A stretch of 64,000 nt of DNA. Source: Rhodocytophaga rosea (GTDB lineage Bacteria > Bacteroidota > Bacteroidia > Cytophagales > 172606-1). The stretch covers positions 992,001 through 1,056,000 of the forward strand of contig NZ_CP048222.1 of NCBI RefSeq assembly GCF_010119975.1, read 5' to 3'. Below the pieces are notes generated by a model. That model was not told the DNA's origin. It was given only the letters and a program-made list of their open reading frames with translations, and did not search any database. Of the stretch, positions 5,576-13,991 are shown one piece after another (position 1 is the first letter of the stretch; each line of letters opens with the position of its first letter). The position numbers were made by a program, and so were the translations under genes.

Positions 5576-6247
5576 TTATTCAATTTTCCATCCTAATTGA
5601 TTTCGAGCAAACTCAAGTTTCACCTTGTCTTGTTTAATAATTTCTTCAAGACTATTGCTGCCATCTGGTATGCTTTTTAATAAGTTTTCTGCTTGTAAGA
5701 ACAACTCTTTATTATAAACTGATAAATAATCATTTTCTTTAAAGAAATAATGGAAATAAAAATAATTTTCTATTATATCATTTTCCTCAATGATTCGCCT
5801 TAATACCAATGTATGTATACTATCTAATTCTTTCTTGTTTTTTGGCCCAATCCAATAGAATAGCTTTGAAATTCCGATTTTCGTTTTTTTGTCACTAAAC
5901 TGAAAAAACTGACATAATTTATCAATTATCTTTTTTGTTCCTTCAGCTTTTATACTTGGTCTTATAAAAATTCGGTTAAAGCTAGGATCTCCATAGTTAA
6001 TTCCAACTAGCAATAATTCATTGATTAATAGATCAGGAATATTCTTATAATAGTACATTAAATCTCCAACAAATTCCTTTTTGGTCTCTTGCTTAAGTAA
6101 ATCAATTAGCTGCTGTTCAAATTTTTGATTAATGACTGGAAAAGTCTTCTTCACCTTTTTTAAAACTTCATGATCTCTATCATAATCGGGCGCAAAATAT
6201 CCTCCTTTTTGAATATATTCTTGGCAAAATTTTTCTAATTCACTCAT
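5576..6247 (-). CDS. hypothetical helical protein
   Basis: This 223-residue protein is rich in Lys, Glu, Phe and Ile, without signal peptide or membrane span, and is predicted to be mainly alpha-helical. No domain is recognised; HEAT-like adaptor or immunity-type proteins are conceivable but unsupported. It starts only 17 bases after the stop of the ABC permease gene, so it may be the third gene of that operon. Its base composition is clearly more AT-rich than the ABC genes, which suggests separate origin or recent acquisition. It is followed by the hairpin cluster. Confidence 0.65.
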   Translation of the reverse strand: MSELEKFCQEYIQKGGYFAPDYDRDHEVLKKVKKTFPVINQKFEQQLIDLLKQETKKEFVGDLMYYYKNIPDLLINELLLVGINYGDPSFNRIFIRPSIKAEGTKKIIDKLCQFFQFSDKKTKIGISKLFYWIGPKNKKELDSIHTLVLRRIIEENDIIENYFYFHYFFKENDYLSVYNKELFLQAENLLKSIPDGSNSLEEIIKQDKVKLEFARNQLGWKIE

Positions 6248-6264
6248 TCCGTTAACCTAAAATC

Positions 6265-7308
6265 TCAATACCATTTAAACACACGCAATCCAACTATAAA
6301 ACACACCACTCCATAACTGAGCAGGATAAGTATTTTACCTCCAACCTCTGCCAGAGTGGCTGCTTCGTTAAACACACTGCGAAAGGCATCCGCAAGCAGG
6401 GTGAGCGGCATATACTGAATAATGGAGGCTGCCCAGTCCGGAAAATTGGTATAGCTGAAAAAAATGCCGGATACAATGGTAAGCGTAAGGGTAATAAAAT
6501 TGATAATCCCACTGCCTACCTGTGTTTTCTCCGGTCTTGCCGCTACCAGAATAGCAATGCCACCAAACCCAATATTTCCGGCTAAAAATAGCATAAACAC
6601 GGTAAATAAACTTCCCTGTACCTGCACATCAAACAGGAAACAGGCAAACAAGAGCAGCAATATATTTTCGAATAAAGTCAAAATAAGCCTGGTCGCAAAC
6701 TGGGCTATCAAAAACTCTGAGCGGTTCATAGGCGTTGCTACCATCCGCCTGAGCAGCTTTTTAATGCGCAGTTCAATCAGACTCCAGCCAATACCCCAGA
6801 TACAAGAGTTCATCAGCCCAAGGGCAATCATTCCCGGAATCAGAAAATCAATGTAGCGGCTTCCTCTGGTAATTACTGGTTTTATCTGGGAAGTATTTCC
6901 ATTTTGCAGCTTTTGTTCCAACTGTAAATATTGCAGATAGGCATTTTCATTACCTGGGTCAAAATGATAGGTGAATGTATTTTGGGGTTGAGGTTCGATA
7001 ATCAGTTGGATTTCCCCTCTTTTCAACTGCAAAAATGCCTCGGTTGAATCCAGTGGCAAAAATGTAAAATGGGTATTGGATAAGGAATCTGATGTATTGT
7101 TTTGGAGATTAGTAAGTGCGGAATGAGTAGCCGCCACTTGATTTTGAATATACCCGACTTTATTTTCTTTGGTACCCTGCTGGGAAAAAGCAAACCCCAG
7201 AACTGCTGATAAAGATACCGGAAACAAAACTGCCCAGAACAATACTTCCGGCTCCCTGATAAGCTCCCGAAGTTGAATGGCAACCAGATTGATAAATGAA
7301 TTATTCAT
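6265..7308 (-). CDS. ABC-2 type transporter permease
   Basis: A 347-residue ABC-2 membrane protein. One N-terminal span (about residues 22-44) is followed by a large extracytoplasmic loop (45-150) and then five spans from about 155 to 343, the YhfG/DrrB-like layout. It starts 8 bases inside the upstream ATP-binding gene, so the two are translationally coupled and form one exporter. Such pairs export drugs, lipids or polysaccharides; the substrate here is unknown. LRRMVATPMNRSEFL is the conserved cytoplasmic coupling segment of ABC-2 permeases. Confidence 0.88.
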   Translation of the reverse strand: MNNSFINLVAIQLRELIREPEVLFWAVLFPVSLSAVLGFAFSQQGTKENKVGYIQNQVAATHSALTNLQNNTSDSLSNTHFTFLPLDSTEAFLQLKRGEIQLIIEPQPQNTFTYHFDPGNENAYLQYLQLEQKLQNGNTSQIKPVITRGSRYIDFLIPGMIALGLMNSCIWGIGWSLIELRIKKLLRRMVATPMNRSEFLIAQFATRLILTLFENILLLLFACFLFDVQVQGSLFTVFMLFLAGNIGFGGIAILVAARPEKTQVGSGIINFITLTLTIVSGIFFSYTNFPDWAASIIQYMPLTLLADAFRSVFNEAATLAEVGGKILILLSYGVVCFIVGLRVFKWY

Positions 7309-8236
7309 TCAGGCTCCTTCCGGTCATGGCTGTAAATAAATCGTCCAGGGTTTTCTTGCGGCATTCCAGCGACAAAACTGTGATGTTATTCTGCTCAAAA
7401 TAACTGATTAGTTGCGGTAAAGTTTGGGTGATGCTAATTACTGTACATATTGCTCTTGTCCCTTCTTCCAGCCACTGAATATGCTTAATCCCTTCAATGC
7501 CTTGCAGGATCTCCTGAGAAAGATGTTGTGCTACTTCAAAGTATATAATTTCTCCTGGCGCATAACTATTCAGAAGTTCAGTGAGCGTACCATCAGCCAG
7601 AATCTTTCCTTTATCAATAATTACAATCCGGTCGCATAAATAAGCGGCTTCTTCCATATAATGGGTCGTTAAAATCATGGCTGTGCCCTTCTCCTGCTTT
7701 AAATTCATCAGGATATCCCATAATTCCCGCCGGGCATTCGGATCAAGACCAGTGGTGGGTTCATCTAGCAGCAAGATTTGCGGCTCGTGCAAAATAGCTA
7801 CGCCCAAAGCTAGTTTTTGTCGCTGTCCGCCAGAAAGATTTACCACATAGGTTTTTTCTTTTTCTTCTAAGCGAATTGTTTTCAGAATCTGGTCTGTGCG
7901 GTCTTTACCCAGTTTATAAAAACTTCCAAACAGATCAAGTGTTTCCCGCACCGTCATTTTATCGGTAAACTTGGTTTCCTGTAAAGAAATACCAATAATC
8001 CGCCGTAAAAATGAAGCGTGTTGCTTCCAGTTTTTTTGCTTGATGCTAATAGAGCCTGAATCAGGTTTTTGTAGGCCTTCGATCATTTCGACCAAGGTTG
8101 TTTTTCCGGCTCCATTGGGTCCTAACAAGGCCAGATATTCATTGTATCCAATGTCTAGGTTTATATTGTCTACGGCTTTAAATCCATTGAATGATTTACT
8201 GATAGACCTGATTTCGATGAGGGCAGATATATTCAC
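7301..8236 (-). CDS. ABC transporter ATP-binding protein
   Basis: A 311-residue nucleotide-binding subunit. Walker A is GPNGAGKTTLVEMIEG (about 39-54), the signature motif is LSGGQRQKLALG, Walker B/D-loop is LLLDEPTTGLDPN, and the switch His lies in LTTHYMEEA. After the NBD, about 90 residues form the regulatory C-terminal domain common in CcmA/DrrA-like proteins. It is the first gene of the exporter operon and overlaps the permease gene by 8 bases. It energises export by the ABC-2 permease; the substrate is not deducible. Confidence 0.93.
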   Translation of the reverse strand: MNISALIEIRSISKSFNGFKAVDNINLDIGYNEYLALLGPNGAGKTTLVEMIEGLQKPDSGSISIKQKNWKQHASFLRRIIGISLQETKFTDKMTVRETLDLFGSFYKLGKDRTDQILKTIRLEEKEKTYVVNLSGGQRQKLALGVAILHEPQILLLDEPTTGLDPNARRELWDILMNLKQEKGTAMILTTHYMEEAAYLCDRIVIIDKGKILADGTLTELLNSYAPGEIIYFEVAQHLSQEILQGIEGIKHIQWLEEGTRAICTVISITQTLPQLISYFEQNNITVLSLECRKKTLDDLFTAMTGRSLNE

Positions 8237-8389
8237 TACTGAGCTGTGCTTGTATTAGAATGCGGAGGTATAATAAAACTATGAAGTAAGTATATGTACG
8301 ATCCGCTTCACATTCATAGTTACATGAAATTTTCTGCAACAGCAAATACATCTTTTGAGGAAAATATAAGTTGACCAGGGCAAAAAAAG

Positions 8390-8419
8390 AGGGTTATGCT
8401 ACAAAGTATGCATAACCCT
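8390..8419 (-). terminator. intrinsic terminator
   Basis: A perfect 10-base stem AGGGTTATGC/GCATAACCCT with a 10-base loop lies downstream of the repeat lipoprotein gene. On the minus strand the stem is followed by a T-rich run (the plus strand reads CAAAAAAAG just before it), so it should terminate that gene. Confidence 0.8.
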
Positions 8420-8497
8420 TCTGATTGTCAACCCGAACCTATGAAAACTAGTGATTTGAAATATTAACCTAAATCCTTTCTGATAAATCCACTGAAA

Positions 8498-9373
8498 TTA
8501 ATTACCTGTTCCGGTACCAGTCCCTGTTCCACTGCCTGTACCTGAACCAGTACCCGTTCCGCTACCTGTGCCTGAACCAGAAGTACCGCTTCCGCTATTC
8601 GTGCCAGTGCCTGTTCCAGAACCAGTTCCTGATTTTTTCTGAGTACCAGTTCCAGTGCCTGTTCCACTCCCTGAAGTGCCTGTACCAGATGTTCCAGTAC
8701 CAGAAGTGCCGTTGCCTGTTCCAGTTCCGGAATTACCTGTCCCACTACCTGATGTACCTGTGTCAGTATCGGTATTGGCATCAGATCCACTTGTACCAGA
8801 TCCTGAAGTACCTGTACCGCCTTGGGTTCCACTGGAATTACTGCTCCCCTGTGTACCACTTCCTGATGTTCCACCTTGAGTTCCAGTTCCGGAAGTACCT
8901 GTACCTGAACTTCCATATGTACCAGTTCCCGCTCCGGTTCCGCTACCAGAATTACCTGTTGTTCCAGTACCACTTCCTGAGGCTCCTGTACCAGTTCCGG
9001 AATTACCTGTTCCACTCCCTGATGTTCCGGTTCCTGTATCTGAACCAGAGGTTCCAGTACCAGATCCACTAGTTCCTGTGCCAGAAGTCCCTGTTCCGGA
9101 AGTTCCAGTGCCCGAGCTTCCGTACGTTCCCGTACCTGCGCCGGTTCCGCTTCCTGAGTTACCAGTAGTTCCAGTACCACTGCCCGAAGCTCCTGTACCA
9201 GATCCACTGGTTCCAGTACCTGTATCAGTGTTGGCATCTGTTCCTGTACCGCTGCTGCCTGTCCCACTCATGCCCTGGTTACATCCGTAAGGTAAAATTG
9301 AGATTGAAATAATAGCAGTTGCAAAAATTCCTTTTGTAATAGCTGATTTTATTTTATTAGCAATAATGACCAT
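8498..9373 (-). CDS. Ser-Gly-Thr repeat secreted protein
   Basis: A 291-residue protein. A signal segment (residues 12-30) ends at Cys31 in ILPYGC, an imperfect lipobox, so lipoprotein anchoring is likely but not certain. Everything after residue 35 is low-complexity sequence built from [10 protein letters not shown] and SGSG units with a few Asp, Asn, Gln and Tyr. A 36-residue block (about 61-96) recurs at 130-165. It should be unstructured and surface exposed. No enzyme domain is present. A shorter paralogue lies at 10200-10502, with a TnpB-like fragment between them. The repeats keep the antisense and shifted frames open, but the signal peptide identifies this frame. The function is unknown. 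Confidence 0.75.
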
Positions 9374-9519
9374 GATTGATATGATTTTAAAGTGATTTGT
9401 TTGGTTAAAGAATGATTTATGTGATTAAAATTTTAATATATTTTCAAAACTGCCTTTTATAGCAGCTTGCAAGAATGTATTCAAACGATACTAACGAAAT
9501 AATTGATAGTAAGTATGGA

Positions 9520-10068
9520 TTAAACCTGTATATCCAGATAATAGCTTTTATATTTTTTAAATAAAGTGGCAGAAGCAGGATGTTTGCCAGATAATACCTT
9601 TTTCTGGCAGTTTCCAATGTCTAAATGAAATTTTTCTCTGCCCTGAAGTAAGGTAAGTCCAACGGTCCATTCATCATTTTTCAGAGTGAATGTGCGCGAA
9701 TCAAACACAACATGGTTGGGCGGAAATGGATAAAAGATCACTTTGTCTTCTTTCAGTGCCGGAGCAACTCTGGCCACAGCCCGTATGGCCAGGTTTGCAG
9801 GCAAGCTATATAACTCACGAATCTGCTGGTAACAAGCCTGATGTAATTGCCATTGCTGGCTTATCTTGTGTTGTTTACCATACGACCATACAAAAAGGCA
9901 GGCGTCGGCAAATGCTTGTAAAGCAGTATCCAGCTGCTGCCGCTGTTGCGGACCGGTTATAAGTTTACAAGGAACAACAAAACCTGTTTGCCTATGTACT
10001 AAAGCCTTTTGTACGGATGAAATAATCATAATTGCCGATTCATATTTATTAATTAAATGAGCATACAT
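9520..10068 (-). CDS. TnpB-like N-terminal half, no RuvC domain
   Basis: This 182-residue ORF resembles the N-terminal half of IS200/IS605-type TnpB proteins. Family features in order are CKLITGPQQRQQL, LQAFADACLFVW, LHQACYQQIRELYSLPANLA followed by IRAVARVAPALKEDK, then SRTFTLKNDEWTVGLTLLQG and the beta segment ending KKYKSYYLDIQV. In full-length relatives the RuvC nuclease domain starts right here; in this gene a TAA follows and no frame downstream resumes it. It therefore has a REC/WED-like part without catalytic residues. Translation may start at the in-frame ATG at 10029 rather than 10068. It could be a decaying fragment or a retained stand-alone protein; no IS ends or partner TnpA were found. 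Confidence 0.65.
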   Translation of the reverse strand: MYAHLINKYESAIMIISSVQKALVHRQTGFVVPCKLITGPQQRQQLDTALQAFADACLFVWSYGKQHKISQQWQLHQACYQQIRELYSLPANLAIRAVARVAPALKEDKVIFYPFPPNHVVFDSRTFTLKNDEWTVGLTLLQGREKFHLDIGNCQKKVLSGKHPASATLFKKYKSYYLDIQV

Positions 10069-10137
10069 AATATTGACTGCAAGGCTGATTTATATGCCTG
10101 ATAAATCAAATACCAATACCCAGAAGATATATAAAAA

Positions 10138-10187
10138 GATAGCCGGATTACCTTGAAAAGAATGTATAGAGGTAAAATCCGGCTATC
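10138..10187 (-). terminator. intrinsic terminator
   Basis: A near-perfect stem GATAGCCGGATT-ACCT/AGGT-AAAATCCGGCTATC with about 15 loop bases lies between the 100-residue lipoprotein gene and the TnpB-like fragment. On the minus strand it is followed by CTTTTTAT, so it should end the lipoprotein transcript and make the TnpB fragment a separate unit. Confidence 0.8.
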
Positions 10188-10199
10188 TATGTATGTTAA

Positions 10200-10502
10200 T
10201 TATTGAGTTCCCCCAGTACCTGTTCCGCTATCGGAGCCGGAAGTACCTGTACCTGATGCTCCGGTTCCGGAAGCCCCAGTACTTGTGCTGGTGGTATCAG
10301 TTCCCATATCAGTAGAAGTAGTATCCATTTCAGAAGTTCCAGTATTCGATCCTGCATCCGTTTCGGTATCTGGTCCTCCCCCATCTGTGTTCGTTCCACT
10401 GTTACTGTTATCACATGACGACAGTAGCGGCAAGGCAAATACTGAAAGCAGGAAAGTTCCTTTTACAAAACAGGCTTTTAGATTTCTCCAATACATTTTC
10501 AT
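10200..10502 (-). CDS. Ser-Gly-Thr repeat lipoprotein, short
   Basis: A 100-residue lipoprotein. The signal FLLSVFALPLLSSC has a canonical lipobox (LSSC, Cys30). The mature part is Asp/Thr/Ser/Gly-rich, beginning with Asn/Asp/Thr-rich stretches and ending with SGTG-type repeats closely like those of the 291-residue protein at 8498-9373. The DxxxD-rich first part could bind divalent cations, which is only inference. No domain is recognised. A strong terminator follows. Confidence 0.75.
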   Translation of the reverse strand: MKMYWRNLKACFVKGTFLLSVFALPLLSSCDNSNSGTNTDGGGPDTETDAGSNTGTSEMDTTSTDMGTDTTSTSTGASGTGASGTGTSGSDSGTGTGGTQ

Positions 10503-11237
10503 AATACAAGGGTTAAGGTTATAGATGTATAGCCAGATAGCTCATTTATCCTATGCTTCAAGCCTTTATCAGCTGTTACCGGAAAAAATATCCTATAACA
10601 AAGGGCAATATTGGCTAAAACAAAGCACTGGTATATGAAATATGCAATCTGAACTATTTCTCAGAAGTTGTGTACGGGAAAAATGATAAATGGTGACAAA
10701 AAATTAATACTGAATTTAACAAATTGAGGTAAATACGTAATAAATGCGTATAAAACACATATTTTTATTAATAACACTAATTCTATATATGTTACTAGAA
10801 TTAAAAATAAACGAGTTGTAGTAAAGGGTTGATAAGCATTGATTTATAGTACCATTCTATGTTGCTGACAACCGCCAGTTTGTAATAAAACCTAACAGGA
10901 ACCGCTACTGCCGGAAACATCTTAAAAATTTCTGGCTTTTCTTACTTAATTCCCGGCACCCCATAAAATAGTTGTCTATATACCCCAGCTAAAAATTCCT
11001 CTCAATACCTGCTATTATATTCTATATAGCTTTCTATCAGTAATTTTAATGAAGGTGAGGAGTACATTTTAGCCTATTTTATAACCTGCCTTTTAAAGTG
11101 AGCCATCTTCAAAAAACTGTTTAGTGATTTACCCCTTATTTGCTCATTATCCTTGTTGCAGAGAGACTTACTTATTCAAGGTGAACTGTTTCAGAGATTC
11201 TCCCTTTACTTTGTCTTTCATTCATAAATCTTCGCGT
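10503..11237. other. 735-base AT-rich intergenic region
   Basis: A long spacer between divergent genes. It should contain promoters for the short repeat lipoprotein (minus) and the OmpA-family protein (plus). It is strongly AT-rich around 10690-10830 with no recognisable gene, tRNA or long hairpin. Confidence 0.5.
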
Positions 11238-13991
11238 ATGCTATATTATTATCGTATTAAACACACAAGTCTATTTCTAAGGTCTGCCTGTGTTTTTTTG
11301 CTTCTACAGGTATGGAGCCAGTTGCTGTTCGGACAATCTGCTACACTATACCAGACCGGGTTTGATCAGCCGGACCCAGATTGGGCATGGAGCCAGGTTG
11401 ATGATGCCGATATGTTCCGTCAGATCAGAAACGGCGTAATGGATATCGAACAACGGGGGCAAAACATATTCTGGACTACGCGAAAAGTAAATATGTCTGC
11501 CTTGAATTTCGAGTTAGAAACTACTTTTACCACAAAGGAAATATCTGGTGAATCTACCGGAGGGCTTGGATTTGTGCTAGCAGGCCGGGAGGAGAAATAT
11601 TATTATTTTGCCATTTACCCCAAAAATGGAACCTATTATATAGGCAGTTCGCAAAAAGGACAGTGGGTAACTATTCATGGTAAATCAGATCTGTATCCTG
11701 CTCATCCGGCTGTTAAAGGATTGAACCAGTCACAAACCCTGCGTTTGCAGGCAGATGCCGCTTCTGTAGTTTTCACTGTGAACGGACAGGAAATATTCCG
11801 GTGTATACGCCGCAACCGGTATGATGACTTTCAATGGATGGAACATGTAGGTATTGCTACTATGGGTCCCCAGAAATCGCAGGTAGATTCTTTTGTTATG
11901 CGCCAGCAAAGCCCGGAAGCAAAGCCATCCGCTTCCCAAACGCCTCTTGCCACCGCCTATACTACTTCATTTGATCAAACCGACCCTACCTGGTTGTGGA
12001 GTGACTGGGATGATGCAAACATGTATCGCAAGATCAAAGAAGGCTCTTTATACATTCAACAGAAAAATAATAACTCCAGCTATTGGACCATCCGCACCCT
12101 TCCGGCAGCACCTGGTAATTTTGAATTTAATACTACGCTCACGCTCACAAAAGCCGAAGCGAGCAAAGGGGCTGGTTTGATTGTTTCATGTAATGATGCT
12201 TTGTATTACTATTTCATGGTATATCCGAAAGAAAATAATGTATGGGTAGGAAGTGAGCAAAAGGGTACCTGGAAGAGCTTTCATTCGTCGAACGGGCGTT
12301 TTCAGAATGGGGTGGTAAAAGGCTTACATGAAAAATATGTTATCCGGGTAGAGAAACAAGGGGCTCAGGTGAATTTCTTTGTTAACAATGAAAAAGTGTT
12401 TACCAGTGATATTTATACGCACTATACTGAACTGCCTTATTTTAACCAGGCAGGCATCATTACAGATGGGATTATAGAAGCCAAAGTAGATGACTTTACA
12501 CTTCTGCAGAATCAAATTCCTATTCGCCTGTCGGCCGACGCAAATCAGGTGCTCACCAAAGAGAAATTGCCGGCTACCATTAACTCCACTTTTTCCGACC
12601 GCTTGCCTATTATCAGCCACGATGGAAAAACACTGTATTTTGTACGTTCCAGTGATCCGGCCAATGTTGGTCTGGATGATATATGGGTGAGTAATCTGGA
12701 AAATGGACAGAACTGGGGACAGGCAAAAAATCCTGGTGTGCCTCTCAATAACCAGTCTCACAATGCGGTGCTTTCGGTAACGCCAGATAACAATGCCATG
12801 CTGCTGATGCACCGTTACAAAACAGATGGTGCTTATAATGGTCCTGGTTTTTCGCTGTCACAGCGTTTAGCTAGCGGCTGGAGTATGCCAAAAGATGTGC
12901 TAGTAAAAAATTATTATAATCTGGCCGGCTACAATGAATATGCCCTCAGCCCAGACCGGAAAGTACTGGTACTGGCCGTAAAATGTAATGATACCCAGGG
13001 AAACCGGGATTTATATGTCAGTTTCCGGGAAACCGATAGTACATTCACAGAACCTAAGCGTATGGGAGATGTACTCAATTCATGGCGGGAAGAAATAACC
13101 CCTTTTATTGCCGGTGATGGCGTAACTATGTATTTTGCCAGCAATGGCCATCCCGGATATGGGAGTTCAGATATATTTATGTCGAAGCGGCTGGACGATT
13201 CCTGGCTGAACTGGAGTACACCAGTTAACGTAGGGCCTTATATTAACCACTCCGGCTGGGATGCCTATTTTACTTTGCCTGTACAGGGAAGTTATGCAAT
13301 GGTAGTTTCTTATGATACGGATGGCGGTGATAATATTTACAAAGTTCCTCTGCCCGCTTCTATCCGGCCTGAACCAGTGGTGCTTGTAAAAGGAATTGTA
13401 AAGAATGCCAAAAGCATGCAACCTTTACAAGCAGGCGTACATTACCAGGATCTGATCACCAACCAGGAAATTGGCATTGCTCAGACTAATCCGGTAGATG
13501 GCTCATATCAGCTCATGCTGAAAGCCGGAAGGAAATATGGTTTTTCAGCAGGTAAAGAAGGCTTTTACCCGGTAAGTGAATACCTGGATTTATCGGCATT
13601 AACAGAATATAAAGAAGTGCAGCGGGATCTGCTATTATCCCCGGTTGAGAAAGGAGAAATTATCCGGCTGAATAATGTTTTCTTTGATCTGGCTAAAGCC
13701 AACCTGCGTAATGAATCTCAGTCTGAACTGGATCAGCTGGTGGCATTTCTCAAACAGCAGTCTGCCCTTAAAATCGAACTATCCGGGCATACTGATAATG
13801 TAGGAAGCGATACAGATAATCTTACGCTTTCGCAGGAACGTATCAAAAGTGTGCGTACCTATCTGATCAAAAAAGGCATTCCGGAAAGCCGGTTACAAGC
13901 CAAAGGATGTGGGGAAAGTCAGCCGCAGGCAAGTAATGATACGGAAGATGGCCGGCAGAAAAACCGCAGGGTGGAATTTAAAATTTTGTAA
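11238..13991 (+). CDS. PD40/OmpA family outer-membrane protein
   Basis: A 917-residue envelope protein. A signal peptide covers residues 1 to about 33 (ends LLFGQS). Two homologous beta-sandwich domains of laminin-G/DUF1080 type follow (about 35-175 and 200-345, each beginning with Y-x-T-x-F-D-Q-x-D-P-x-W). Next are PD40/WD40-like repeats (about 370-640), a carboxypeptidase-regulatory-like domain (about 670-770), and a C-terminal OmpA domain with NVFFDLAKANL and ELSGHTDNVGS, ending QKNRRVEFKIL. The OmpA part should bind peptidoglycan, tethering the propeller to the outer membrane. I use the ATG at 11238, since it gives a proper signal peptide; an ORF extension to 11124 does not. The tandem N-terminal domains are not in the usual PD40-OmpA proteins. 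Confidence 0.88.
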   Translation: MLYYYRIKHTSLFLRSACVFLLLQVWSQLLFGQSATLYQTGFDQPDPDWAWSQVDDADMFRQIRNGVMDIEQRGQNIFWTTRKVNMSALNFELETTFTTKEISGESTGGLGFVLAGREEKYYYFAIYPKNGTYYIGSSQKGQWVTIHGKSDLYPAHPAVKGLNQSQTLRLQADAASVVFTVNGQEIFRCIRRNRYDDFQWMEHVGIATMGPQKSQVDSFVMRQQSPEAKPSASQTPLATAYTTSFDQTDPTWLWSDWDDANMYRKIKEGSLYIQQKNNNSSYWTIRTLPAAPGNFEFNTTLTLTKAEASKGAGLIVSCNDALYYYFMVYPKENNVWVGSEQKGTWKSFHSSNGRFQNGVVKGLHEKYVIRVEKQGAQVNFFVNNEKVFTSDIYTHYTELPYFNQAGIITDGIIEAKVDDFTLLQNQIPIRLSADANQVLTKEKLPATINSTFSDRLPIISHDGKTLYFVRSSDPANVGLDDIWVSNLENGQNWGQAKNPGVPLNNQSHNAVLSVTPDNNAMLLMHRYKTDGAYNGPGFSLSQRLASGWSMPKDVLVKNYYNLAGYNEYALSPDRKVLVLAVKCNDTQGNRDLYVSFRETDSTFTEPKRMGDVLNSWREEITPFIAGDGVTMYFASNGHPGYGSSDIFMSKRLDDSWLNWSTPVNVGPYINHSGWDAYFTLPVQGSYAMVVSYDTDGGDNIYKVPLPASIRPEPVVLVKGIVKNAKSMQPLQAGVHYQDLITNQEIGIAQTNPVDGSYQLMLKAGRKYGFSAGKEGFYPVSEYLDLSALTEYKEVQRDLLLSPVEKGEIIRLNNVFFDLAKANLRNESQSELDQLVAFLKQQSALKIELSGHTDNVGSDTDNLTLSQERIKSVRTYLIKKGIPESRLQAKGCGESQPQASNDTEDGRQKNRRVEFKIL

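What the first reader, a model, noticed from the sequence alone, without database searches (positions are those of the whole stretch)
9520..10068. Stand-alone TnpB N-terminal half without RuvC
The ORF carries the REC/WED-like half of an IS200/IS605-type TnpB and stops with TAA exactly where the nuclease domain would begin. No downstream frame resumes it, and no TnpA or IS end was found. It also lies between two related Ser-Gly-Thr repeat lipoproteins. It may be a decaying fragment, or a retained nucleic-acid-binding remnant, a type that could regulate or compete with active TnpB.
Basis: partly seen in the sequence, partly recalled or inferred. Interest (0 to 1): 0.55.

Follow-up and report, generated by a model that had tools for sequence, protein, structure and literature searches.

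The report
TnpB recognition lobe without its nuclease
This bacterial gene encodes only the nucleic-acid-recognition half of TnpB (the ancestor of CRISPR-Cas12), cut at the border of the missing DNA-cutting half, and relatives show that such half-proteins can be kept by selection, which suggests that a retired gene-cutting enzyme was recycled as a small DNA- or RNA-binding protein.

Summary
The ORF is real (minus strand, 182 aa) and TnpB-derived. Its AlphaFold2 model (pLDDT 88.5) is a complete recognition lobe: a seven-stranded WED barrel with REC helices between strands 1 and 2, and the TAA follows the last strand. Residues 28-182 superpose on ISDra2 TnpB 3-173 (Z 13.9). No RuvC sequence follows, and the complete 8.98-Mb genome matched neither of two TnpB nuclease-half models.

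It is not fresh debris. Two other genomes of the same bacterial family carry the stand-alone form (52-54% identical). Those two are syntenic; their shared core has dN/dS 0.14 (bootstrap 0.075-0.24), like adjacent genes. All three form a fully supported clade on a long stem within full-length TnpBs. A second stand-alone pair, on Paenibacillaceae plasmids, looks independent (AU p 0.0003). A Rhodothermus plasmid copy is a recent truncation.

Best reading: an exapted, nuclease-free recognition-lobe protein that binds a short DNA motif or structured RNA, probably as a regulator. Retention is shown for the sister genus and inferred for the window copy; the molecular function is inference. Competition with a resident TnpB is not supported, since none was found. 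My literature searches found no description; two key papers were not readable.

The parts
9520..10068 (-). Stand-alone TnpB recognition-lobe gene, 182 aa
   Evidence: ORF list; TIGR01765; homologues and tree; structure
9982..10068 (-). N-terminal extension, residues 1-29, low model confidence; the true start may be internal (a second in-frame ATG is residue 14)
   Evidence: pLDDT about 50-60; not aligned to relatives
9958..9978 (-). WED strand 1 (residues 31-37)
   Evidence: DSSP of the model
9748..9951 (-). REC helices (residues 40-66, 72-87, 91-107) inserted between WED strands 1 and 2
   Evidence: domain layout of ISDra2 TnpB from PMC10097598 passages
9838..9888 (-). Residues 61-77, which hold 6 of the 11 positions fixed in this clade but unusual in full-length TnpBs (W61, Y63, H67, Q71, W73, Q77)
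   Evidence: scan p 0.010, chosen after seeing the data
9526..9714 (-). WED strands 2-7 and flanking helix (residues 119-181); carries D123, R125 and R144, invariant in the 37-row alignment
9520..9522 (-). TAA stop, directly after the last WED strand, where full-length relatives enter the WED-RuvC linker
10131..10194 (-). Terminator-like hairpin with U run upstream of the gene, belonging to the upstream lipoprotein gene; context, not part of the protein
   Evidence: inverted repeat; RNA fold of 10069-10199 z -3.95
8498..9373 (-). Flanking Ser-Gly-Thr repeat ORF with lipobox-like start (context)
   Evidence: no Pfam match
10200..10502 (-). Flanking Ser-Gly-Thr repeat ORF with lipobox-like start (context)
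   Evidence: no Pfam match

Best explanation
The gene is an exapted fragment of a Cas12f-like TnpB that has kept the whole recognition lobe (WED plus REC) and lost the whole nuclease lobe (RuvC plus TNB). Shown: the fold, the domain-precise cut, the absence of RuvC sequence behind it, and purifying selection on the same stand-alone form in a sister genus. Inferred: it works as a small basic nucleic-acid-binding protein. In TnpB the cleft between WED and REC reads the TAM duplex, and the WED barrel binds part of the omegaRNA scaffold; both surfaces lie within this fragment, while the guide-target channel and the other half of the RNA-binding surface need RuvC. So the likeliest activity is guide-independent binding of a short TAM-like DNA motif, or of a structured RNA, used for regulation of gene expression. 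It may act as a dimer, since Cas12f dimerises through its REC domains.
For: Structure: pLDDT 88.5, pTM 0.80, seven strands plus one helix around three REC helices, matching the WED/REC layout of ISDra2 TnpB given in PMC10097598 (passages). Foldseek best hit AsCas12f 8dzj_A E 3.1e-6. VIA-align: ISDra2 8exa_A Z 13.9, rmsd 2.5, 145 aligned, model 28-182 to chain 3-173, and each of the 50 rows shown is a Cas12, TnpB, Fanzor or TranC entry. Retention: homologues in two more genomes, synteny between those two, dN/dS 0.14 on 121 core codons against 0.17, 0.14 and 0.21 for three neighbours. One clade 100/100 with stem 1.21. Residues near-invariant in TnpBs are kept: Y80, D123, R125 and R144. Base composition matches the window, GC 0.40 against 0.41. 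Binding surfaces and REC dimerisation are from passages of PMC10097598 and PMC13186708.
Against: Only three members of this clade are known, one cut by a contig end, two from metagenome assemblies. Presence is patchy: 3 of 8 family genomes, absent in the one congener held. dS between the window copy and the others is saturated, so selection on the window copy itself is inferred. No conserved partner gene or conserved flanking DNA links the window locus to the others. The second structure alignment consisted mostly of N-halves of full-length TnpBs, which helps the TnpB fold to appear; with only the three stand-alone sequences pLDDT was 61.2 and no Foldseek match reached E 1e-3. A sequence profile of alignment A6 reached no solved TnpB at E up to 1. 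The residue-by-residue state of the TAM-reading positions was not mapped. The net basic charge is ordinary for a TnpB N-half.
Confidence: 0.5

Rival explanations
1. Decaying IS200/IS605 or TnpB fragment that happens still to be open and has no function.
For: Broken TnpBs do occur in these taxa: a G002 copy whose nuclease-half match holds 3 TAA stops and a Rhodothermus plasmid copy that matches a full-length sibling at 90% DNA identity over its first 466 nt and then stops matching. Presence is patchy and the window gene sits at a site where the congener G001 has other genes.
Against: Stand-alone homologues in two genera, synteny and dN/dS 0.14 in one of them; no RuvC remnant in any of the three loci; no close full-length sibling found. 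In a neutral simulation of a 159-codon core, 0.5% of 2000 runs stayed open after 0.5 substitution events per site and 0.15% after 1.0.
Confidence: 0.15
2. Inhibitor or competitor of active TnpB or Cas12 (of resident or incoming elements), by binding omegaRNA or TAM sites, or by joining a REC-REC mixed dimer.
For: It keeps the surfaces named above, and Cas12f dimerises through REC (PMC13186708 passages). G002 and G006 do hold full-length TnpBs.
Against: No PF07282 or PF01385 match in the window genome. The full-length TnpBs of G002 and G006 sit in a distant part of the tree. No link to mobile or defence genes was seen in the G002 and G006 loci; no PADLOC match for the window or G002 protein.
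Confidence: 0.1
3. Split TnpB: the RuvC half is encoded elsewhere in the genome and joins in trans.
For: Other nuclease families are found split; this is a general possibility, recalled and not from a call.
Against: No match to PF07282 (Cas12f1-like_TNB) or PF01385 (OrfB_IS605) in the complete genome at E 0.01, while both models rang in about half of 14 control genomes (8 and 7).
Confidence: 0.03
4. RNA-guided repressor like TldR, with a guide RNA held by the lobe alone.
For: TldRs show that nuclease-free TnpB derivatives can be regulators (PMC13418256 passages).
Against: The omegaRNA scaffold of ISDra2 is bound by WED and RuvC together, and the guide-target duplex lies between REC and RuvC (PMC10097598 passages). 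Downstream of the gene there is no unusually structured RNA in the window (146 nt, z -0.82) or G002 (z -0.42), and in G006 only 55 nt separate it from the next gene. No flanking similarity between loci.
Confidence: 0.1

Closest known systems
TnpB of IS200/IS605-type elements (Cas12f-like branch; e.g. Rhodothermus pRMAR01 and Gloeobacter pGMOR1 copies, solved ISDra2 TnpB)
   Same: WED and REC fold, 36-40% identity to those two full-length proteins over the N-half
   Different: No RuvC, no TNB, no transposase neighbour, no recognisable guide RNA
TldR, TnpB-like nuclease-dead repressors
   Same: Nuclease-free, retained TnpB derivative outside an active transposon
   Different: TldRs keep an inactivated RuvC domain and a guide RNA (PMC13418256 passages); here RuvC is gone altogether
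CRISPR-Cas12f, in particular its second protomer
   Same: Best structural matches; in several Cas12f entries the matched second chain is modelled for only about 190-200 residues (8dzj_B 197, 7wju_B 200, 9nzp_B 194), so a recognition lobe ordered by itself is seen in nature
   Different: Same full-length polypeptide in Cas12f; here the lobe is its own gene
Inactivated type V effectors (V-C, V-M and others)
   Same: Function through binding instead of cleavage (PMC12669027 passages)
   Different: They keep a RuvC-like domain and a CRISPR array
Paenibacillus rhizovicinus and Thermobacillus composti plasmid hypothetical proteins (L025:2088-2630, L024:3007-3537)
   Same: Also a TnpB N-half alone, 176-180 aa, 52% identical to each other
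   Different: Separate clade, other phylum, on plasmids; tree and AU test speak for an independent origin

Membership tests
TnpB (RNA-guided endonuclease) | WED and REC recognition lobe | tested here: met
   Model and structural matches; sequence relatives
TnpB (RNA-guided endonuclease) | RuvC nuclease domain with catalytic triad | tested here: not met
   ORF ends before it; no RuvC match in window 6000-11500; no PF01385 match in the genome
TnpB (RNA-guided endonuclease) | TNB zinc-ribbon domain | tested here: not met
   No PF07282 match in the genome
TnpB (RNA-guided endonuclease) | omegaRNA at the 3' end | tested here: inconclusive
   No structured or conserved RNA found downstream, but omegaRNAs are diverse and no RNA data exist
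TnpB (RNA-guided endonuclease) | Family model of full-length TnpB (NF040570) matched | tested here: not met
   Window protein matches only TIGR01765, below cut-off; the full-length relatives L020 and L021 match NF040570
IS200/IS605 element | TnpA or IS ends next to tnpB | tested here: not met
   No Y1_Tnp row near 1.00 Mb; no IS-end-like repeat found
TldR | Inactivated but present RuvC | tested here: not met
   RuvC absent
TldR | Guide RNA next to the gene | tested here: inconclusive
   None seen; no RNA data
Pseudogene or IS remnant | Frame broken, or nuclease remnant left in the DNA | tested here: not met
   Frame open; no RuvC remnant in the window, G002 or G006 locus
Pseudogene or IS remnant | Neutral dN/dS | tested here: not met
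   0.14 (0.075-0.24) between G002 and G006; not measurable for the window copy, dS saturated
Cas12f | CRISPR array beside the gene | not tested
   No CRISPR search was run; the direct-repeat search covered 9300-10600 only

The most novel reading that the evidence does not exclude
Recognition-lobe-only TnpB derivatives are a recurrent, so far unrecognised class of domesticated proteins: at least twice (a Cytophagales family; Paenibacillaceae plasmids) a TnpB was cut at the WED-RuvC linker and the lobe then kept for long times as a guide-free reader of short DNA motifs or structured RNA, with its REC surface remodelled for new partners.
Probability: 0.4. Interest if true: 0.8.

Novelty: new variant of a known kind. 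Interest (0 to 1): 0.58.

Why it matters
Known domesticated TnpB products (Cas12 effectors, TldRs) keep the RuvC domain, active or dead. A retained lobe with no RuvC would show that the recognition half is useful alone. That makes a direct question testable: can the WED-REC module bind TAM-like DNA or scaffold RNA without guide and nuclease? At 150-odd residues it would also be a very small starting module. It also gives annotation a new category: short 'transposase N-terminal' ORFs now named hypothetical should be checked for selection before being called fragments.

Tried and rejected
Alignment-free leads. The close-relative scan of genome contigs with the single protein found no relative; with the three-row alignment it found only the G002 and G006 loci, and that scan needs near-exact short peptide patterns, so more distant members would be missed. 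Viral contigs: no relative with the stand-alone alignments; 47 loci with a full-length alignment, the TnpB rows for alignment and tree. Phages: two hits, of which RM378 was opened. Class-wide search of 395 genomes with A6: own genome only. These genome searches score only a capped number of candidates per genome, so absences are soft.

Rows dropped. Tree: 48 rows (7 stand-alone, 41 full-length N-halves); 23 of the 47 viral loci were used, L004 was dropped because no full-length frame was found, L034 (815-aa frame, partial match) was not examined. A6: window, L013, L014 and 34 of 47 viral loci. For the AU tests SA_G599 was left out because of its branch of 2.57. The AU test assumes the group was named before the tree was seen; here it was not. 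A further AU test, window clade plus Gloeobacter full-length, gave p 0.054, so the nearest full-length relative is unsettled.

Plasmid hits: of 26 records with E up to 0.01 I opened five, chosen partly because some were annotated 'hypothetical protein': two full-length, three stand-alone. This is not an unbiased rate; H62 (Allomeiothermus 'hypothetical protein') was not opened.

Considered and rejected: NiCo riboswitch match in the gene (20.8 bits against a gathering score of 37); omegaRNA downstream; shared operon between the two plasmid loci, since only the stand-alone ORF matched between the 20- and 22-kb stretches; PADLOC Csx1 match of the Thermobacillus protein at E 0.001, because the same model matches full-length TnpB L021 at 2.1e-45 and so appears to contain TnpBs. 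Mapping of the ISDra2 TAM residues onto the window protein was attempted through PDB sequence searches, but these alignments cover only the nuclease half; not achieved. Literature: searches listed no paper on a TnpB recognition lobe without RuvC; Altae-Tran 2023 (PMC10691335) and Wiegand 2024 (PMC11702177) are not held, so both remain unread.

Full report
OBSERVATION. The ORF at 9520-10068 is on the minus strand, 182 aa, ATG to TAA (the plus strand has 10 stops). It matches NCBIfam TIGR01765, the N-terminal domain of putative transposases, at E 3.9e-5 but below the curated cut-off, and no Pfam family. tblastn links it to full-length transposase/TnpB genes on plasmids: Gloeobacter morelensis 40% identity, E 3e-29, and Rhodothermus marinus 36%, E 5e-27; both were opened and are full-length, 377 and 388 aa. 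Full-length TnpB queries find no nuclease-half match at window 6000-11500. The gene is single-copy in a complete 8,983,451-base genome, in which neither PF07282 nor PF01385 matches at E 0.01. So the half-protein lives in a genome where no TnpB nuclease was found.

STRUCTURE. With only the three stand-alone sequences the model was poor (pLDDT 61.2) and no PDB match reached E 1e-3, although the top hit was a Fanzor. With 37 rows, mostly N-halves of full-length TnpBs from viral contigs, pLDDT was 88.5 and pTM 0.80, about 97 over most of residues 30-182. The strands are 31-37, 119-123, 127-130, 135-140, 143-150, 166-172 and 175-181, with a helix at 153-159; the REC helices 40-66, 72-87 and 91-107 lie between strands 1 and 2. 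PMC10097598 (passages seen) describes ISDra2 TnpB's WED as residues 1-12 and 117-176, a seven-stranded barrel flanked by a helix, REC (13-116, four helices) inserted between strands 1 and 2, and RuvC from 185. The window protein is the same lobe, with three REC helices in the model, ended directly after strand 7. Foldseek: AsCas12f 8dzj_A E 3.1e-6. VIA-align: Cas12f 9i8y_A Z 16.0; ISDra2 TnpB 8exa_A Z 13.9, rmsd 2.5, 145 aligned, 28-182 to 3-173; the 50 rows shown are all Cas12, TnpB, Fanzor or TranC. Caveat: the alignment fed to the predictor carries TnpB information, and a sequence profile of it does not reach solved TnpBs at E up to 1.

RELATIVES. Among 8 genomes of the family held, 3 have the stand-alone form: the window's, G002 and G006. 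G002 and G006 are the metagenome assemblies JAUJMU01 (Cytophagales bacterium YX1bin7) and CADCTQ01 (uncultured Cytophagales AVDCRST_MAG56). Identity to the window protein is 52% over residues 32-180 and 54% over 63-181. G006 starts at a contig end. Homology ends at the same place in all three; the window protein stops there, G002 and G006 have unlike tails of about 20 aa. No RuvC match lies behind any of the three. G002 and G006 loci are syntenic: the gene is followed by a LuxR-type response regulator, a 343-aa protein and a further ORF, 70%, 75% and 56% identical, with a CheB/CheR-like pair extra in G002 (CheB/CheR named by eye). The window locus shares none of this, and the congener G001 has the ABC-transporter genes next door (72% and 64% identical) but other genes where the lipoproteins and this gene lie. 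Searches of 390 genomes of the order, 395 of the phylum and 395 of the class added no further member of this clade.

SELECTION. Between G002 and G006, dN/dS is 0.14 on 121 core codons (dN 0.146, dS 1.031; bootstrap 95% 0.075-0.24). Three syntenic neighbours give 0.17, 0.14 and 0.21. Over the whole overlap including tails it is 0.20/1.08. Between window and G002 synonymous differences are saturated (pS 0.91, pN 0.35), so for the window copy selection is inferred from an open frame and conserved residues. A simulation gives 3.9%, 0.5% and 0.15% open frames after 0.25, 0.5 and 1.0 neutral substitution events per site.

TREE AND CONTROLS. In a 48-row tree the three form a 100/100 clade on a stem of 1.21 within full-length TnpBs. 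Paenibacillus rhizovicinus plasmid (L025:2088-2630) and Thermobacillus composti pTHECO01 (L024:3007-3537) stand-alone proteins, 52% identical, form another 100/100 clade, stem 0.96. Joining the two groups is rejected at AU p 0.0003 (group named after the tree was seen). Both plasmid genes sit in same-strand gene runs; the Thermobacillus one overlaps the next gene by 4 nt. Natural controls differ: the R. marinus pRHOM17201 copy (L023:2977-3513, also on G397 contig 2) lies 0.059 from full-length siblings and matches one (L037) at 90% DNA identity for 466 nt only, a recent truncation; a G002 TnpB has 3 stops in its nuclease half; phage RM378 has its TnpB in two overlapping frames; the stand-alone frame of G599 has a branch of 2.57 and may be decaying or fast-evolving. 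In the phylum search, 17 matches comprised 13 full-length frames (392-439 aa), 3 short ones (189, 191, 213 aa) and one of 815 aa not examined.

WHAT CHANGED. Y80, D123, R125 and R144, invariant in the 41 full-length rows, are kept. Eleven positions are fixed in the clade but unusual in full-length rows; six fall at 61-77, the end of REC helix 1 and the start of helix 2 (W61, Y63, H67, Q71, W73, Q77; position 61 is seen in two of three), scan p 0.010, post hoc. In Cas12f the first REC helix and nearby loops form the dimer interface (PMC13186708 passages), and in ISDra2 TnpB residues of REC read the TAM (PMC10097598). I could not map the residues one to one, so either role is open. Charge is as basic as in other TnpB N-halves (pI 9.4 against a mean of 9.8).

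MECHANISM. PMC10097598 (passages) puts the TAM duplex in the WED-REC cleft, part of the RNA scaffold on WED, the rest on RuvC, and the guide-target duplex between REC and RuvC. The fragment therefore keeps motif reading best and guided targeting least. I found no downstream RNA: z -0.82 (window), z -0.42 (G002), 55 nt of space in G006, no similarity between flanks of the different loci beyond chance-level 12-15-mers, no Rfam match over threshold. I therefore favour guide-free DNA-motif or structured-RNA binding for regulation, 0.5 overall; retained gene as against debris about 0.85.

NOVELTY. TldRs and inactivated Cas12s keep RuvC (passages of PMC13418256 and PMC12669027). Nine literature searches listed no recognition-lobe-only TnpB, but Wiegand 2024 and Altae-Tran 2023 were not held. 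I file it as a new variant of a known kind: works perhaps like a TnpB-derived regulator, but is not a TnpB, since RuvC, TNB and element context were tested and not met.

Noticed in passing
L045:7429-8070 (G599 contig 101, minus strand): Another TnpB N-half alone (213-aa frame, start uncertain) lies between a gspE-like ATPase ORF and a secretin-like ORF in a same-strand secretion/pilus-type gene run (names by eye). Very long branch; a TnpB fragment inside such a run is odd.
   Followed up: partly
L024:3007-3537 and L025:2088-2630 (Thermobacillus and Paenibacillus plasmids): A second, apparently independent pair of recognition-lobe-only proteins, annotated hypothetical, in gene runs near TadA/T4SS-type ATPases; next to Replic_Relax and S1-domain genes in Paenibacillus.
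   Followed up: partly
L023:2977-3513 and L040:1498-2034 (Rhodothermus plasmids): A recent truncation of a TnpB at nearly the same domain border, with a full-length sibling at 90% DNA identity. Repeated cuts at this border may not be chance.
   Followed up: partly
L022:2833-4060 (Rhodothermus phage RM378): TnpB gene in two overlapping frames, annotated as a hypothetical protein and a transposase.
   Followed up: no
window 8498-9373 and 10200-10502, minus: Two Ser-Gly-Thr repeat ORFs with lipobox-like starts and no Pfam match flank the gene; the G001 stretch next to the same ABC-transporter genes has different genes there.
   Followed up: partly
PADLOC model PDLC01039 (Csx1): This model matches full-length TnpB L021 at E 2.1e-45 from residue 1 to 347, so it seems to be mislabelled or to contain TnpB sequences.
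   Followed up: no
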